Below are positions 23,328 through 29,170 of a stretch of DNA of 64,000 nucleotides, one piece after another (within the stretch, counting starts at the first letter, position 1; the number at the start of each line of letters is the position of its first letter). The DNA comes from Polyangium sp. 15x6 (GTDB lineage: Bacteria > Myxococcota_A > Polyangia > Polyangiales > Polyangiaceae), in assembly GCF_029960785.1 (NCBI RefSeq), contig NZ_JASBQE010000002.1:124001-188000 (forward strand), read 5' to 3'. The translations under genes and the position numbers were made by a program. The notes beneath the pieces were generated by a model, which was given only the letters and a program-made list of their open reading frames with translations, did not search any database and was not told the origin of the DNA.

Positions 23328-24275
23328 TCAAAGATCCTTGCAACATCGAACGCCGGTCGAATAATCGAAATAATCGAACGGATGGGCCCGGACCATGGAG
23401 GCACAACCATCCTTCTTCGATCGCGCGTAAAACCCGCCGACGAACGTCCCCTCCGGATCGTCGATCCACTCGTCGATGTTGCCGACCATGTCGGCGATGC
23501 CATCGCCCTCCCACCGGCTCACGCAGGCCCGCGTCTCGCCCGTCCGGCGGAGGAGCGGCTTGTCCCCGGCCTTCACCGTGTTGAGACGCGGATCGCTGTG
23601 ACCGATGCTCGGATTGCCGTGCAAGAGCCCCGCGGGGTGCGCCTCGCGGAAGATGTTGCATTTGCCCGGTTCGTACGTGTCGCCATAAGGAAAGTCGCGC
23701 TCGTCCTCGCCCCGGCAAGCCGTCTGCCACTCCGCGAGCGAGCAAAGGCGCTTGCCCGCATTCTTGCAAGCGAGCGCGGCGAGCGGACCCGTGAGGTAGC
23801 CCTGGGGGATGCGGCTCTTCTTCGAGACGGCCTTCGGCTCGAAATTGCGCTGCGATTGCCACGGCGGCAGCGGCGGCAGCTCGATCGTGCGCGCCTCGAC
23901 GGGCCCCACGGCGAGGCGCTCCTGCTCCCACAATTTCTGGATCGAGAGCGCCTGCTTGCGGGAGGGCACGTAATAAGGTGAAAGCTCCTGCCCCGTCTCC
24001 ACGTCGACCAGGCTCGCCTCGTATCGATCGACGCAATAACTCTTCTTCACGCGCACCATCTCCGGCGGACACGTGGGCGTCGCCGGCTCGACGAGCGCAA
24101 AATCGTCGGGCCGCTCGGGAAGCGCCACGGGAGCCGAGGCGGAGGCGGGCGCAGGCGCGGCAGCGGAGGCGGGTGCGGCGGCGGAAGCGGACGGGGGCGC
24201 GTCGCCGGGCTTTTCGTCGTCGCAAGCCGTGACGAGGAGCGAGCCGAAAAGGACGATTCGGACCAGACGGTTCAT
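23328..24275 (-). CDS. Formylglycine-generating-enzyme-like (SUMF1) lipoprotein
   Basis: The 315-aa protein has a lipoprotein signal (MNRLVRIVLFGSLLVTAC), an Ala/Pro-rich linker and an FGE/SUMF1 domain. Motifs include CVDRYEASLVD, GKRLCSLAEWQTACRG, NPSIGHSD and MVGNIDEWIDD...FVGGFYA, ending in GVRCC. True FGEs convert a sulfatase Cys to formylglycine. Many secreted SUMF-domain proteins of myxobacteria have other or unknown roles, and no clear CxPSR sulfatase is nearby. Its ATG overlaps the metalloprotease stop (ATGA), so translation is coupled. Confidence 0.82.
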   Translation of the reverse strand: MNRLVRIVLFGSLLVTACDDEKPGDAPPSASAAAPASAAAPAPASASAPVALPERPDDFALVEPATPTCPPEMVRVKKSYCVDRYEASLVDVETGQELSPYYVPSRKQALSIQKLWEQERLAVGPVEARTIELPPLPPWQSQRNFEPKAVSKKSRIPQGYLTGPLAALACKNAGKRLCSLAEWQTACRGEDERDFPYGDTYEPGKCNIFREAHPAGLLHGNPSIGHSDPRLNTVKAGDKPLLRRTGETRACVSRWEGDGIADMVGNIDEWIDDPEGTFVGGFYARSKKDGCASMVRAHPFDYFDYSTGVRCCKDL

Positions 24276-25261
24276 TGAAATGCATGCCCCCACGGATCGC
24301 GGCCCGAGGGCTCCGGGCAGAGGTAACGTCGGACCACGATCCAGTGGTGCATCGGATAGAGGATCGTGTCTTCCTTCATCGACAAACCCATCCGGCTCGT
24401 ATGCGCGCCGGGGAACGGCGTCTTCGGGTAGAACGGCACGATCCCCGAGAGCGCCTCGTACTCGTCCATGAGCCCCAGCAAATGCCCCACCTCGTGCGCG
24501 ATCACCGGCAGCGACCAGCCGCTCCGCAAGGACCAAAAATACGGCGTCCGCCCGCACGTCGTCGACAGCGGCAACGTGAGATCGACCGGCACGCCCTCCC
24601 GCGCCGCCTGGTCATGCGGCAAGAAGGTGAAATCGTACCGCACCGGCAATCCATATCGCTCGGCGTCCCGGTTCCAGTACCGCTCCGCCTCCTCGGACCA
24701 GCGCGCGAGCAGCGCCTCCATGTTGCGCCGCGTCGCCGGCGCCCGGAACTCCCCCGACGAGGGACACGCCTCCGTCGTGTTCGATCGGGAAAACGGCACG
24801 CCCCGGCACACGACCTCCCCCTCGTACCGATCTTTCCCGTCGCAATCCGCGAGCCCGAGCGTCCCGCCCTCGCGCGGCAGCACCACCGCGAACGTCGCAG
24901 ACACCTCCCAGCGCCCCGGCGCGCCCCCGCGCGGCCCCAGCCGTCGCACGTGGTAATGCATCGGTCCGAAAAACAGACGATAATGCGGCATGGCCCCGCG
25001 GATCGTGCGCTCGCCTTCCTCCACGTCGCCAAAAAAGACCTCCCGCGGCGACGGCGAACAGGTGTAAGCGTCCTCCGCGAGGGTCGTCGAGAGTACGTCC
25101 CGGAACGTCGCGCGCGCTTCCGCGCCGAGCCCCGGCGTCATCGACGCGAGCTCGAGCGCGACGTCGTCCGTCGGCAAATAACGCGCGTCGAACCGCGACG
25201 CGACGCATCCCGACGCGAAGGTCGCGCCGAGGGCGACGAAGGCTGCGACGTGGGCCAGCAT
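24272..25261 (-). CDS. Secreted zinc metalloprotease
   Basis: The 329-aa protein has a signal segment with a Cys (AFVALGATFASGC, probably a lipoprotein). A zinc-binding motif HEVGHLLGLMDEYE sits at about residues 256-269: HExxH with a following Gly-x-x-Asp/Glu, in metzincin-like fashion. Several cysteines likely form disulfides. It may be an extracellular or surface protease useful to a predatory bacterium (inference). It is the first gene of the minus-strand operon that runs to 17733. The ATG at 25261 was chosen for the signal peptide. It is divergent from the RiPP precursor gene. Confidence 0.82.
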   Translation of the reverse strand: MLAHVAAFVALGATFASGCVASRFDARYLPTDDVALELASMTPGLGAEARATFRDVLSTTLAEDAYTCSPSPREVFFGDVEEGERTIRGAMPHYRLFFGPMHYHVRRLGPRGGAPGRWEVSATFAVVLPREGGTLGLADCDGKDRYEGEVVCRGVPFSRSNTTEACPSSGEFRAPATRRNMEALLARWSEEAERYWNRDAERYGLPVRYDFTFLPHDQAAREGVPVDLTLPLSTTCGRTPYFWSLRSGWSLPVIAHEVGHLLGLMDEYEALSGIVPFYPKTPFPGAHTSRMGLSMKEDTILYPMHHWIVVRRYLCPEPSGRDPWGHAFQ

Positions 25262-25503
25262 CGCCCCTTCCCTTCCGGCACTTTTCCTTGCTTCGCCCCT
25301 TCGCATCGGGCTACCAACATGGCTCCCGAGGGCGCTGCTCGGCAATCCGGATCCGGACGACGAGCACGCACGTAGGTGGGAAACCCCAGCACCCCGGGGG
25401 GAGACGATACATGGCGGGGGGGAGGTTTCGCACGAAGCGCTCGATGTCGCGACTTCCTCGGGGTGCCTACTCAGAAAAGAACCGCTTGGAACGGAGATTG
25501 ACC
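25262..25503. promoter_or_regulatory. Divergent control region
   Basis: A gene-free stretch of 242 bp between the metalloprotease operon (left) and the RiPP precursor (right) must hold both promoters. GGGAAACC and CGATAC words near 25379-25410 recall ECF-sigma promoter elements, but the spacing (about 19-20 bp) is too long to be convincing. A GGAG sits seven bases before the precursor ATG. Confidence 0.4.
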
Positions 25504-25764
25504 ATGAACATGAACAAGATGATGGCGTCGCTTGCGGTGGGCGGGATGATCGCGGGTCTCGCGGCGTGTGGCGGCAGCCAGGCGCAGCCCGAGAACGCCG
25601 ACAGCAAGGCGGGCGCCGAGTCGGGCGCGCAGGCCTCGTGCAGCGGTCAGAAGACCGACGGCGCGGCGCACTCCTGCAAGGCCGGCGCCTGCAGCGGCAA
25701 GAAGGAAGGCGAGGCCGCGCCGGCCGACGGCGCCGCCCCCGCTCCGGCCGACGCGCCGAAGTGA
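25504..25764 (+). CDS. Cys-containing lipoprotein-type precursor peptide of the DUF692 system
   Basis: The 86-aa peptide has a lipoprotein-like signal (LAVGGMIAGLAAC, then GG). A hydrophilic mature part carries three more cysteines in ASCSGQ and HSCKAGACSGKKEG, and an Ala/Pro tail. It sits directly upstream of DUF692 and DUF2063 genes, the place of precursors modified by multinuclear non-haem iron oxidases such as bufferins. The C-x-x-G-x-C-x-G layout resembles the bufferin repeat, where Cys residues are modified to bind copper. Alternatively it is an unmodified small lipoprotein. ATG 25504 has GGAG seven bases upstream. Confidence 0.75.
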   Translation: MNMNKMMASLAVGGMIAGLAACGGSQAQPENADSKAGAESGAQASCSGQKTDGAAHSCKAGACSGKKEGEAAPADGAAPAPADAPK

Positions 25765-25795
25765 TTCGAGCGGCCCCCCGCGCCGCTTGAGCCCG

Positions 25796-25844
25796 AAGGG
25801 CCGCCGTTTCCACCCCAGGGTGGCGCGAGCGGCCCTTCGTCTTT
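25796..25844 (+). terminator. Attenuator between precursor and DUF692 gene
   Basis: A nine-base-pair stem AAGGGCCGC/GCGGCCCTT closes a GC-rich inner loop and is followed by CGTCTTT. It lies between the precursor stop and the DUF692 start. Partial termination here would give more precursor than enzyme mRNA, as is common in RiPP operons. Confidence 0.6.
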
Positions 25845-25869
25845 AGACCGCTTCTTCGGAGACACCGCG

Positions 25870-26724
25870 ATGACCGCACCCGCCCGCATGCGCCTCGGCC
25901 TCCCCGACCTCGGGATCGGCGTGGGCCTGCGCCTGCCGCACTACGAGGAGATCTTCGAGACCCGGCCCAAGGTCGACTGGTTCGAGATCATCAGCGAGAA
26001 CTTCCTCGTCCCCGGCGGCGTGCCGCTCGCGAACCTCGACCGCGCCCTCGCCCACTACCCCGTGATCCAGCACGGCGTCACGCTCTCGATCGGCGGCACG
26101 ACCCCGCTCGACTTCGAGTTCCTCCGTGATCTCCGGACGCTGCTCCGCCGAACGAAATCTCCGTGGGTGAGTGATCACCTCTGCTGGACCGGCACCGCCA
26201 CGCTGAACACGCACGACCTCTTGCCCCTGCCCTACACCGCCGAGGTCATCCGCCACGTGGCCGCCCGCGCCCGCATCGTTCAGGACACGCTGGAGGTGCC
26301 GCTCGTCCTGGAGAACGTGTCGAGCTACCTCACGTACACGTCGAGCGACATGACCGAGTGGGACTTTCTCACCGCCGTCGTCGAAGAGGCGAACTGCGGG
26401 ATCCTGCTCGACGTCAACAACATCTACGTCTCGTCGGAAAACCACGGCTTCGACCCGCGCGCGTACGTCGACGCCGTCCCGGCCGAGCGCGTCGTGCAGA
26501 TCCACCTCGCCGGCCACACGAACTACGGCGACTACATCATCGACACGCACTCGGGCCCGGTGATCGATCCGGTCTGGGACCTCTACCGCCAGGCGATTCG
26601 CCGCGTCGGTCCGGTCTCCACGCTGATCGAGTGGGACGAGGACATCCCGCCGCTCGCCACGCTCCTCGCCGAGGCAGAGCGGGCGCGCGTCGTCCGCGAG
26701 GAGGCCCTGTCCCATGCGAAATGA
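25870..26724 (+). CDS. DUF692 multinuclear non-haem iron oxidase (MNIO)
   Basis: The 284-aa TIM-barrel protein has the family's residues in order: GVGLRLPHYEEI, WFEIISENF, HGVTLSIGG, WVSDHLCW, LENVSSY, LDVNNIYVSSENHGFDP, IHLAGH, IDTHSGPV and IEWDEDIP. The His, Asp and Glu residues in these blocks bind two or three iron ions. Characterised members (MbnB, TglH, bufferin enzymes) modify Cys in ribosomal peptides. The start at 25870 is the first ATG after the attenuator. It overlaps DUF2063 by 11 bp. Confidence 0.93.
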   Translation: MTAPARMRLGLPDLGIGVGLRLPHYEEIFETRPKVDWFEIISENFLVPGGVPLANLDRALAHYPVIQHGVTLSIGGTTPLDFEFLRDLRTLLRRTKSPWVSDHLCWTGTATLNTHDLLPLPYTAEVIRHVAARARIVQDTLEVPLVLENVSSYLTYTSSDMTEWDFLTAVVEEANCGILLDVNNIYVSSENHGFDPRAYVDAVPAERVVQIHLAGHTNYGDYIIDTHSGPVIDPVWDLYRQAIRRVGPVSTLIEWDEDIPPLATLLAEAERARVVREEALSHAK

Positions 26725-27556
26725 TCTCGCCTCGGTGCAAGCGTTCCTCGCGAGCGTGATCCCCGGCCACGCGCCGATCCCCGACGAACCGGCCCTCGCA
26801 GAGACGGCGGCGCGGTTCGTCACGGGAAACGGTCGCCTCACGCCGGCCGCGCAGGTCGACATCTACCGACGCCAGTTCTGGCTCCGCCACCGCGAGATCC
26901 TGCGCGACGATTTTCCCGCGCTCGCGCGTCTGCTCGGCGAGGACAAGTGGAACGCGTTCTGCCGCGACTTCCTCGGCGTCCATCCTCCTGCGCACGCCGC
27001 GTTCGAGAAGTTGATCGAGCCCGTGCCGCGCTTCGCCGAGACATGGACCGGCCTCGAAACGCAAGCCGAGCGCACGTTCGCCGCGGACCTCGCGCGCTAC
27101 GAGATCGCGCTCCTCGAGGTGCGTACGGGCCCCGACGCGCCGCCGCTCGATCCGCAGATGCTCGCGCGTCTGCCCGAGGACGCCTGGGAGCGCGCGCGGA
27201 TCGTGCTGCACCCCGCGATGCGACGGCTCTCGTTCGCCTACCCCGTGCACCGCCTCCGCAAGGCGTGGCTCGTCTCCGGCGAGCCGGCCGTCTTCCCCGA
27301 CGCACCCTCGCCCGCGCACATCGCGCTCTACCGCAACCGCGAGCTCGTCACGCACTTCGAGGAGCTCGAGCCCGAGGCCGCCACGCTGCTCGACCTCCTC
27401 GCCGAGGGTGTGCCGCTCGTGCCTGCGCTGGGCCGCCTCGCCGAGCCCTTGCCCGAGGATCGACAGGCCCACGTGGCGGCGAGCGTCGGGCGCTGGTTTC
27501 AGCAGTGGACGGCCCTCGGCATCGTGGCTTCGGTCGACCTCCCCTCATCTTCGTAG
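26714..27556 (+). CDS. DUF2063 partner protein
   Basis: The 280-aa protein has the N-terminal DUF2063 domain (LASVQAFLASVIPG, VDIYRRQFWLRHREIL, DDFPALARLLGEDKW). It continues into a C-terminal domain with HPAMRRLSFAYPVHRLRKAW. In known systems this protein works with DUF692, probably presenting the precursor peptide to the enzyme as MbnC does for MbnB. The gene overlaps DUF692 by 11 bp, indicating translational coupling. It is the last gene of the RiPP unit; 59 bp separate it from the YjbQ-family gene. Confidence 0.9.
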   Translation: MRNDLASVQAFLASVIPGHAPIPDEPALAETAARFVTGNGRLTPAAQVDIYRRQFWLRHREILRDDFPALARLLGEDKWNAFCRDFLGVHPPAHAAFEKLIEPVPRFAETWTGLETQAERTFAADLARYEIALLEVRTGPDAPPLDPQMLARLPEDAWERARIVLHPAMRRLSFAYPVHRLRKAWLVSGEPAVFPDAPSPAHIALYRNRELVTHFEELEPEAATLLDLLAEGVPLVPALGRLAEPLPEDRQAHVAASVGRWFQQWTALGIVASVDLPSSS

Positions 27557-27615
27557 TTGCAGAGAACCCCGACCATCGGACACGTTAGGAGCCACGTGCG
27601 GGGGGAAACGTGCCG

Positions 27616-28050
27616 ATGAGGGAGAGCGTCCACCAGAAGACCCTCGACATCCGCACCCGCGGGCGGGGTCTCTACGACGTCACGAGCGCGGTCGCGGCCG
27701 TGCTCGACGACGCGGGCATCACGATCGGCCTCTGCTCGCTCTTCCTCCAGCACACCTCGGCGAGCCTCGTCGTGCAGGAGAACGCCGATCCGGCCGTGCT
27801 CCGCGATCTCGATCGCTGGATGGCGCGCGTCGCGCCCGACGGCGCCGGCTACGAGCACGACGCCGAGGGCCCGGACGACATGCCCGCGCACATCCGCGCG
27901 GCCATCACGAGCACGAGCCTCACGATCCCGGTCACCGCGGGCAAGCTCGCGCTCGGCACCTGGCAAGCCATCTACGTCTGGGAGCACCGAACGAGCCCGC
28001 ACACGAGGCGCCTCGTGATCACCTTGCTCGGCGCCTCCGGAGGCCCATGA
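27616..28050 (+). CDS. YjbQ/UPF0047 family protein
   Basis: The 144-aa single-domain protein has the family's signature LFLQHTSASLVVQENADP and a C-terminal LALGTWQAIYVWEHR strand. UPF0047 proteins form trimers with a metal-binding His cluster; some have weak thiamine-phosphate synthase activity, and the role is unclear. ATG 27616 is preferred over GTG 27610 because GGGGGA lies nine bases upstream of it. The stop overlaps the next start (ATGA). It is probably expressed with the two following genes. Confidence 0.9.
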   Translation: MRESVHQKTLDIRTRGRGLYDVTSAVAAVLDDAGITIGLCSLFLQHTSASLVVQENADPAVLRDLDRWMARVAPDGAGYEHDAEGPDDMPAHIRAAITSTSLTIPVTAGKLALGTWQAIYVWEHRTSPHTRRLVITLLGASGGP

Positions 28051-28466
28051 ACGCACGTACTTCGATCTTCGCCCGCGCCCTTTTCGTCCTTCCTTTGGCC
28101 CTCGCGTTCGCCGCGACGCTCGTCTCCGCCTGCGCCGGCAGCCTGCCGACGAGCCTCGAAGACGGCCGCTTTCAGACGTGCGAGACGAACGAAGACTGCG
28201 CCGCGCGCGACGCCGGGGTCGGGGGCGGGATCTGCTGGAACCTGCGCTGCGTGCAGTGCCGCTACGACACGGACTGCGCCGCGGGCTCGTACTGCGCCGA
28301 CAACCTCTGCAAGACGCTCGATCCGAAGCCGGCCGAGGAGAAGGACCCGACGGACCAGAACGCGAAGAACATCGACGAGTGCATCAAGGCCTGCACCGAC
28401 AAGGAGTGCATCGACACGTGCAACGCGCGTTTCCCCGACGCGAAGAAGAAGCGGAGGGGGCGATGA
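28047..28466 (+). CDS. Cys-rich lipoprotein
   Basis: The 139-aa protein has a signal ending in a lipobox (ALAFAATLVSAC). About twelve cysteines follow, in a pattern common to myxobacterial surface proteins (TCETNEDCAARDA, CRYDTDCAAGSYCADNLC, CIKACTDKECIDTC). It probably forms several disulfides outside the cytoplasm. No enzyme function is apparent. Both ends overlap neighbours by ATGA, so the three genes 27616-29170 are translationally coupled. Confidence 0.8.
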   Translation: MNARTSIFARALFVLPLALAFAATLVSACAGSLPTSLEDGRFQTCETNEDCAARDAGVGGGICWNLRCVQCRYDTDCAAGSYCADNLCKTLDPKPAEEKDPTDQNAKNIDECIKACTDKECIDTCNARFPDAKKKRRGR

Positions 28467-29170
28467 CGCTCGTCGAGACGGCCAAGGGCATCCTCGACAC
28501 GGCACGCATCAGCGTGCCCACGGTCGTCGACGCGGCGATGGGACGTCTCGACGCCGAGACGTGCGACGAGCGGCTCGCGTGGTGGTCGCGCAAGCTCTTC
28601 GCGGACGCGGAGGTCAGCCTCGTCGTGCGCGGGCGCGAGCACCTCGGCGATGGACGCGAGACGTTCATCGTGATGTCGAACCACCAGAGCCTCTACGACA
28701 TCCCGGCGCTCTACCGCGCGATCCCGGATCGAAGGCTGCGCATGGTGGCGAAGGCGGAGCTCTTCGACGTGCCGGTCTGGGGCCACGCGATGAAGGCCGC
28801 GGGGTTCGTCCGCGTCGAGCGCGGCAACCGCACGCAGGCCGTCGATGCGCTGCGCACGTCGAGCAGCATCCTGGAGGAAGGCTCGCTGCTCTGGATCGCG
28901 CCCGAGGGGACACGCAGCGCGACGGGGATCGTGGGGAGTTTCAAGAGCGGAGGGTTTCACCTGGCGCTCGAGACGGGCCACCGCATCTTGCCGGTGGCGA
29001 TCGACGGCACGCGCGACGTGCTGCCGGCGCGTGGGACGATCGTACGCAAGGGCAAACGCGTGGTCGTGACGATCCTGCCGCCGATCGATCCGAAGGCGTA
29101 CGGCAAGGAGCACCGCAAGGAGCTCACGGTCGCGGTGCACGACGCGATCGTCGAGGCGATGAGCCGCTAG
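28463..29170 (+). CDS. 1-acylglycerol-3-phosphate acyltransferase-like (PlsC)
   Basis: The 235-aa protein has the acyltransferase motifs in order: NHQSLYDIP (HX4D), FVRVERGNR, PEGTRS and ILPVAIDGT. This family adds an acyl chain to lysophosphatidic acid or related lipids at the inner membrane. No strong membrane helix is visible. It is coupled to the lipoprotein gene by ATGA. Its TAG stop overlaps the TAG stop of the convergent SGNH hydrolase gene in a shared CTAG. A generic PlsC call is safer than a specific gene name. Confidence 0.88.
   Translation: MTLVETAKGILDTARISVPTVVDAAMGRLDAETCDERLAWWSRKLFADAEVSLVVRGREHLGDGRETFIVMSNHQSLYDIPALYRAIPDRRLRMVAKAELFDVPVWGHAMKAAGFVRVERGNRTQAVDALRTSSSILEEGSLLWIAPEGTRSATGIVGSFKSGGFHLALETGHRILPVAIDGTRDVLPARGTIVRKGKRVVVTILPPIDPKAYGKEHRKELTVAVHDAIVEAMSR

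What the first reader, a model, noticed from the sequence alone, without database searches (positions are those of the whole stretch)
25504..27556. Candidate RiPP operon: Cys-rich lipoprotein precursor + DUF692 + DUF2063
The sequence shows a short Cys-containing secreted peptide with SCKAGACSGKK-type spacing, an attenuator hairpin, then coupled DUF692 and DUF2063 genes. DUF692 enzymes modify Cys in peptides such as bufferins and methanobactin precursors. Here the precursor carries a lipoprotein signal rather than a plain Sec signal, so the product could be a surface-anchored metal-binding peptide. It lies in an operon-like row with YjbQ, a second Cys-rich lipoprotein and an acyltransferase.
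Basis: partly seen in the sequence, partly recalled or inferred. Interest (0 to 1): 0.78.

Follow-up and report, generated by a model that had tools for sequence, protein, structure and literature searches.

The report
Lipid-anchored bufferin-type peptide operon, shrunken core
A soil bacterium of the genus Polyangium carries a small gene set that very probably makes a membrane-tethered, chemically modified metal-binding peptide of the known bufferin type, but with its cysteine core cut from about eight to three and its export signal kept almost unchanged.

Summary
A lipoprotein-type precursor (25504-25764), a terminator-like hairpin, an MNIO/DUF692 enzyme and an overlapping DUF2063-RRE partner sit in the bufA-bufB-bufC order. 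The MNIO passes NCBI's bufferin-maturase model; the partner's predicted fold matches NGO1945 and TglHI. The precursor lies beside the enzyme in all six Polyangium genomes examined. Polyangium keeps three, fails the BufA2 model and has largely lost the Cys-Lys motif. Core reduction needs at least three changes on a 54-enzyme tree. The signal peptide is the conserved part: 59% identical between Polyangium and the five other genomes, against 9-25% for four neighbouring lipoproteins; dN/dS 0.11 against 0.76 for the mature part. Lipoprotein bufferins are already in print, so this is a new variant of a known kind. Thiooxazole formation, lipidation and copper binding are inferred, not shown. The YjbQ/acyltransferase block is conserved synteny without evidence for a functional link.

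The parts
25420..25444 (+). genus-specific invariant 25-nt element in the 5' leader of the precursor gene
   Evidence: identical in 6 of 6 Polyangium genomes examined; a 19-nt part of it has one exact match in the own genome and at best 2 mismatches elsewhere; no match with fewer than 8 mismatches upstream of the precursor in 18 other loci
25504..25764 (+). BufA-like lipoprotein precursor, 86 aa, 4 Cys (1 lipobox, 3 core)
   Evidence: no Pfam family and no NCBIfam model over its cut-off
25504..25569 (+). lipoprotein signal peptide with lipobox LAAC (codons 1-22)
   Evidence: dN/dS 0.11; 59% identity Polyangium versus five other genomes against 9-25% for four control lipoproteins
25636..25704 (+). 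core region with three conserved Cys (residues 46, 58, 63)
   Evidence: three core Cys in 6 of 6 species with changing spacing and flanks
25795..25838 (+). terminator/attenuator-like hairpin followed by a T-rich stretch
25870..26724 (+). MNIO (DUF692) peptide-modifying enzyme, BufB type
   Evidence: PF05114 E 4.3e-109; NF050167 357.6 bits over cut-off 310; solved relatives 3bww, 8hci
26714..27556 (+). DUF2063 + RRE partner protein (BufC / PME-type 1)
   Evidence: PF09836 and PF22106 over cut-off; AlphaFold2 model pLDDT 86.3, best PDB matches 3dee and chain A of the TglHI entries 8hi7 and 8hci
27610..28050 (+). YjbQ/UPF0047 protein, syntenic neighbour, role in the pathway not shown
28047..28466 (+). 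Cys-repeat lipoprotein (Myxo_Cys_RPT-like), neighbour, probably not a RiPP precursor
   Evidence: TIGR04201 E 0.0018, below cut-off; synteny
28463..29170 (+). 1-acylglycerol-3-phosphate acyltransferase-like protein, neighbour
   Evidence: PF01553 E 3.6e-28; synteny

Best explanation
A bufferin-type (captophorin-class) RiPP gene cluster whose precursor is a lipoprotein. The MNIO (BufB-like) and the DUF2063-RRE protein (BufC-like) bind the precursor in the cytoplasm, probably through the conserved signal peptide acting as leader, and oxidise one or more of the three core Cys (by family precedent to 5-thiooxazole, -4 Da each). The peptide is then exported by Sec, lipidated on Cys22 and held in the envelope as a small metal (most likely copper) ligand. 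The hairpin between precursor and enzyme genes lets more precursor than enzyme be made. In Polyangium the core has shrunk in place from a Buf2-like ancestor with about eight core Cys. Shown here: gene content, family membership of the enzymes, synteny, conservation, conserved hairpin. Inferred: modification, its chemistry, lipidation, metal binding, attenuation, direction of the core change.
For: MNIO over the BufB cut-off and DUF2063 + NGO1945_C over theirs; partner fold matches 3dee and TglHI chain A. HGVTLS, SDHLCW, LENVSS, LDVNNIY, IHLAGH and DTHSGPV align with matching motifs of 3bww (that these carry the metal ligands is recalled). Precursor next to the MNIO in 6 of 6 Polyangium genomes examined. 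A lipoprotein precursor at the syntenic place in 5 of 5 other genomes: eight core Cys in four, four core Cys in G036. MNIO dN/dS 0.21, signal peptide 0.11, mature part 0.76 with three core Cys kept in 6 of 6. Signal peptide far more conserved between genera than four control signals. No fuller Buf2 precursor elsewhere in the own genome (best E 0.03). Hairpin conserved; a stem of 8 or more with 4 or more T in the next 7 in 14 of 34 gaps examined.
Against: The precursor fails the BufA2 model. It has 3 core Cys rather than 6; Cys is followed by Lys at 1 of 3 core Cys in three species and 0 of 3 in the other three. The residue after the catalytic Asp is still acidic (EWDE), as in Cys-Lys enzymes, so no matching enzyme change was seen. 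The MNIO of one of six Polyangium genomes (G005) has a frame break near residue 250. No DoxX or copper gene was found among the 12 genes scanned. Within the genus the signal peptide is not much more conserved (0.96) than two of the four controls (0.79, 0.84). In Microbulbifer a related thiooxazole peptide was not induced by copper (PMC12538549, passages).
Confidence: 0.65

Rival explanations
1. Decaying cluster: the core is a remnant that has lost its metal-binding role, and the enzymes persist for now.
For: Three core Cys where relatives have eight; mature part dN/dS 0.76; MNIO of G005 has a frame break; core reduction needs at least 3 changes on the tree.
Against: MNIO dN/dS 0.21 and intact in 5 of 6 species; three core Cys kept in 6 of 6 although spacing and flanks change; hairpin and signal peptide conserved.
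Confidence: 0.15
2. The MNIO pair modifies another substrate elsewhere; the lipoprotein beside it is an unmodified metal- or redox-active lipoprotein.
For: Precursors encoded away from MNIO genes are known (PMC12452194, section 14); the core has largely lost the Cys-Lys motif.
Against: No better Buf2-type candidate in the own genome; the same position holds a Buf2-like precursor in four of five syntenic genomes; the second MNIO has its own precursor.
Confidence: 0.1
3. Changed chemistry: the KCSG/SCSG cores are turned into something other than 5-thiooxazole (for example oxazolone-thioamide), the substrate rule having moved from Cys-Lys to a small residue after Cys.
For: Cys+1 is Ser at 2 or 3 of 3 core Cys in Polyangium and at 4 of 4 in G036; a Lys-Cys enzyme (FonB) strongly prefers a small residue after Cys (PMC13097082, section 12).
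Against: The enzyme clusters with Buf2-associated enzymes and keeps an acidic residue at the specificity site.
Confidence: 0.1

Closest known systems
Buf2 (Buf_6/12Cys, BufA2) bufferins, the Cys-Lys group of captophorins
   Same: gene order precursor-MNIO-DUF2063; Sec-type N-terminus, about 16% lipoprotein; enzyme of the BufB model; the relatives with 7-8 core Cys that were tried hit NF050166 (below its cut-off)
   Different: 3 core Cys instead of 6 or 12, mostly Cys-Ser instead of Cys-Lys, no NF050166 hit, no DoxX gene among the 12 neighbours scanned
NedA, lipidated oxazolin of Neisseria dentiae (PMC12636315)
   Same: lipoprotein precursor modified by an MNIO and its partner protein
   Different: NedA has EGKCG repeats; here no such repeat (the second Polyangium MNIO locus, whose precursor ends in ACGEGSCG, is nearer to it)
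DybA/ChrA DAG-RiPPs (PMC12636315)
   Same: lipoprotein signal on an MNIO substrate (DybA)
   Different: ChrH-type enzyme, conserved C-terminal CPxCGxG motif that serves recognition; here a BufB-type enzyme with a DUF2063 partner

Membership tests
Buf2 / BufA2 bufferin precursor | match to NCBIfam NF050166 over cut-off 60 | tested here: not met
   no match for P0001 or for the Polyangium 6x1 copy; Legionella control 84.4 bits; Sorangium 33.6, Minicystis 40.8, Labilithrix 29.7 (all three below cut-off)
Buf2 / BufA2 bufferin precursor | 6 (or 12) conserved Cys, Cys-Lys motifs | tested here: not met
   3 core Cys in 6 of 6 species; CK at 1 of 3 or 0 of 3 core Cys
Bufferin BGC | MNIO of the BufB family | tested here: met
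   NF050167 357.6 bits over 310
Bufferin BGC | PME-type 1 partner: DUF2063 fused to an RRE domain | tested here: met
   PF09836 52.8 and PF22106 39.6 bits, both over cut-off; structure match 3dee and TglHI chain A, weak match to TbiB1. NF050145 HvfC hit is below its cut-off (88.6 of 142); no sequence match in the PDB
Bufferin BGC | order precursor-MNIO-partner | tested here: met
Bufferin BGC | DoxX gene (common, not universal) | tested here: not met
   not among the 12 genes scanned in frame between 22205 and 32106
Bufferin / captophorin product | Cys-derived 5-thiooxazole, Cu binding | not testable with these tools
   needs mass spectrometry, NMR and metal titration
DAG-RiPP (RiPP-lipoprotein hybrid) | lipobox signal peptide on the precursor | tested here: met
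   LAAC in 6 of 6 Polyangium precursors; judged by motif, no SignalP available; lipidation not tested
Oxazolin (Buf_EGKCG) | EGKCG repeats | tested here: not met

The most novel reading that the evidence does not exclude
The lipoprotein signal peptide doubles as the RiPP leader: the MNIO-RRE complex recognises the signal peptide itself and must finish before Sec and the lipid-attaching enzyme take over. With recognition held in the signal, the core is free to change, and Polyangium and its relatives have repeatedly rebuilt it, here into a minimal three-Cys lipid-anchored metal ligand with a Cys-Ser rather than Cys-Lys rule.
Probability: 0.4. Interest if true: 0.6.

Novelty: new variant of a known kind. 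Interest (0 to 1): 0.42.

Why it matters
Bufferin-type clusters are among the most numerous RiPP clusters (PMC13097082, conclusions passage), yet it is open how the enzyme complex gets hold of a precursor that also carries an export signal. Antoine et al. (PMC12452194, discussion passage) mention only preliminary results that the signal is part of the recognition sequence. Polyangium and relatives offer a natural series with 1 to 8 core Cys and related signal peptides, in which this can be tested by swapping signals and cores, and in which the smallest core that still binds metal can be found.

Tried and rejected
Matching change in the enzyme: the residue that PMC13097082 (passages) ties to Cys-Lys versus Lys-Cys choice is Glu in the five Polyangium enzymes that could be read there (the G005 reading stops before it), and also Glu in some Cys-Lys enzymes, so no co-change.

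Copper link through neighbours: an FGE-sulfatase lipoprotein gene lies at 23328-24284, and FGE domains are fused to some Buf1 bufferins in print (PMC12452194, section 14), but the genome holds 42 FGE matches, so the neighbour means little. A divergent gene with an HEVGHLLGLMDEYE stretch (24272-25264) had no Pfam match.

RNA element in the 5' leader: no Rfam family reached its threshold (best PhotoRC-I, at 25827-25863, 16.2 bits of 45 needed); the aligned fold has 1 of 71 pairs with changes on both sides, so no covariation support; not found in other loci. Hairpin in the gap: conserved but without covariation, 0 pairs changed on both sides.

Slips. One search read the wrong frame of the second lipoprotein. 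One search aligned two loci from the wrong strand and was replaced. In one search the queries for the FGE lipoprotein, the GDSL-lipase-like lipoprotein and the M50 gene were read in wrong frames; those rows are not used (the first two were read in frame). In one search the M50 gene was read in a wrong frame and gave nothing; one search read it right (PF02163). In one search the G036 precursor was given short by its last residues, so its lack of a match is not used. The automatic precursor finder found no candidate in several loci, and seven tree rows without a precursor were not counted. L061 was left out of the tree although it is not a duplicate.

Full report
Setting. The window lies in contig C198 of a 13.4-Mb genome; its nearest named relatives are Polyangium species, with a 97% identical MNIO in Polyangium sp. 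y55x31.

What is there. Reading 25504-29170 gives, on the + strand: an 86-aa lipoprotein-type precursor, a 105-bp gap with a hairpin, a 284-aa MNIO, a 280-aa DUF2063 protein overlapping it by 11 bp, then after a gap of 53 bp YjbQ, a Cys-repeat lipoprotein and an acyltransferase whose genes overlap one another by 4 bp. The MNIO matches PF05114 at E 4.3e-109 and the BufB model NF050167 over its cut-off; the DUF2063 protein matches PF09836 and the RRE-like NGO1945_C over their cut-offs; the precursor matches no family over cut-off. An AlphaFold2 model of the partner (pLDDT 86.3) is closest in the PDB to NGO1945 (3dee, E 9.3e-06) and to chain A of the TglHI entries 8hi7 and 8hci (taken as TglI, since chain D of 8hci is the DUF692 chain), with a weak match to the leader-bound RRE protein TbiB1 (E 1.1). 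A sequence search of the PDB with the partner found nothing at E up to 1.

Relatives. A search of 59 genomes, the own one included, found the precursor with strong scores in the own genome and the five others of the genus (E 8.4e-29 or better); ten further genomes had only weak matches, E 4.2e-4 or worse. The MNIO was found at E up to 1e-40 in 47 of 59. Of the 80 best MNIO loci from named genomes (a capped list; 570 confirmed), 76 had 400 bp or more upstream and 68 had a candidate small Cys peptide with a hydrophobic N-terminus; 26 of the 68 had a lipobox-like motif by a crude pattern with false hits in both directions. 63 of the 68 have two or more Cys-Lys pairs (counted from the list; the finder asked for two Cys followed by K, S, A or G, so this leans towards such peptides).

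Synteny and core reduction. In five other genomes (three unnamed, Minicystis, Sorangium; at least three genera, since named and unnamed ones may share a genus) the order divergent gene - precursor - MNIO - DUF2063 - YjbQ is kept in 5 of 5, the acyltransferase in 4 of 5 and the second lipoprotein in 3 of 5 (the precursor there was read, as it is too different for that blast except in G036). Counting Cys after the lipobox Cys, Polyangium precursors have 3 in 6 of 6, G036 has 4 (GCSGAK-like repeats), and the other four have 8, such as CCKGKNECKGKGGCK.... On a tree of 54 MNIOs (24 picked by hand from the 80 named loci for spread, plus 30 from the relatives; duplicates and L061 dropped) Polyangium lies in a clade of 18 (support 89/91, not starred) whose other readable members, apart from G036, have 8 core Cys. 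The group labels count from residue 23 and so include the lipobox Cys in several rows; one search gives the corrected counts. Scoring full or reduced cores, with seven rows left out because no precursor was found, needs at least three changes. Holding all 11 reduced rows together is rejected at p_AU 0.0136, but the group was named after seeing the sequences and includes long branches, and Polyangium + G036 may be one event (support 37/79). That reduction, not gain, is the direction in Polyangium is inferred from its nested place.

Where the conservation sits. Across six Polyangium species the signal peptide has 2 of 22 variable residues; the neighbouring second lipoprotein has 10 of 29 (Fisher p 0.048). 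Anchored by eye at the lipobox Cys, without gaps, mean identity over up to 16 residues between Polyangium and the other genomes is 0.59 for the precursor (5 genomes), 0.19 for the divergent lipoprotein (5), 0.25 for the second lipoprotein (3), 0.09 for the FGE lipoprotein (3) and 0.14 for the GDSL-lipase-like lipoprotein (2). Within Polyangium the same figures are 0.96, 0.41, 0.79, 0.41 and 0.84, so there two controls come close. The pairs are not independent. Within Polyangium dN/dS is 0.11 for the signal, 0.76 for the mature part, 0.21 for the MNIO and 0.46 for the DUF2063 protein. Three core Cys are kept in 6 of 6 while their spacing and neighbours change. A conserved leader with a variable core is ordinary RiPP anatomy; here the leader is an export signal. 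Recognition by the signal is inferred; the published hint is one sentence on preliminary results (PMC12452194, discussion passage seen).

Hairpin. The gap folds at -55.6 kcal/mol, z -4.5. In six Polyangium genomes the main helix has one pair that varies (C-G to U-G) and one inner pair that is gapped in four; the rest is invariant. It lacks covariation, so conservation fits an RNA role but does not prove it. Of 34 gaps examined in relatives, picked by hand, 14 (six of them Polyangium) have a perfect stem of 8 or more with 4 or more T in the next 7; no shuffle control was run for that count.

Own genome. A full Sorangium precursor as query found nothing better than E 0.03 in the own genome, where the precursor of this window itself scores only E 0.22; so a fuller Buf2 precursor is unlikely, but another reduced one could be missed. 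The genome has four MNIO matches; the second has its own lipoprotein precursor, seen in part in the own genome and whole in two relatives.

Comparison with print. Papers were found by five searches. PMC12452194: outline with abstract, passages and sections 13, 14, 15 and 17 read. PMC12636315: outline with abstract, section 12 and passages. PMC13097082: sections 12 and 13 and passages. PMC12538549: passages. Lipoprotein bufferins and oxazolins are known. Supplementary tables could not be opened, so this Polyangium precursor may be listed in Table S2 of PMC12452194; I did not find a description of it in the parts read. The PNAS bufferin paper is not held.

Verdict. A real RiPP operon of bufferin type with a lipoprotein precursor; a new variant of a known kind because of the shrunken, mostly Cys-Ser core. 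The chemistry and the metal are inferred from family precedent.

Noticed in passing
L142 (own genome G000:C85, cut at the contig end); complete in L151:1079-1456 and on the reverse strand of L152: A second Polyangium MNIO locus (below both the HvfB and BufB cut-offs) has its own lipoprotein precursor: a long Ala/Pro-rich linker ending in ACGEGSCG, like a single worn EGKCG repeat held far from the membrane.
   Followed up: partly
L153:1290-1421 and L154:1040-1414 (coordinates on the reverse strand): Two Polyangium genomes (G003, G005) have another MNIO with a signal-less small peptide about 1 kb upstream carrying CKCECKCKSF or CKCKCKCKSF near its C-terminus, and an unassigned 288-aa gene between, perhaps a different RiPP type.
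   Followed up: no
25420-25444: A 25-nt stretch in the 5' leader of the precursor gene is identical in six Polyangium genomes and not found upstream of the precursor in 18 other loci; function unknown, no Rfam match.
   Followed up: partly
L143 and L144 (own genome C67, C57): Two further MNIO-like genes in the own genome: one nearest the ChrH model, one remote from all models; both below cut-offs.
   Followed up: no
L147 (G005), around 6461: The MNIO gene of one Polyangium genome has a frame break near residue 250; sequencing error or real loss cannot be told.
   Followed up: no
24272-25264, - strand: Divergent lipoprotein gene with a metzincin-like HEVGHLLGLMDEYE stretch (label recalled) and no Pfam match, conserved beside the cluster in 5 of 5 other genomes.
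   Followed up: partly
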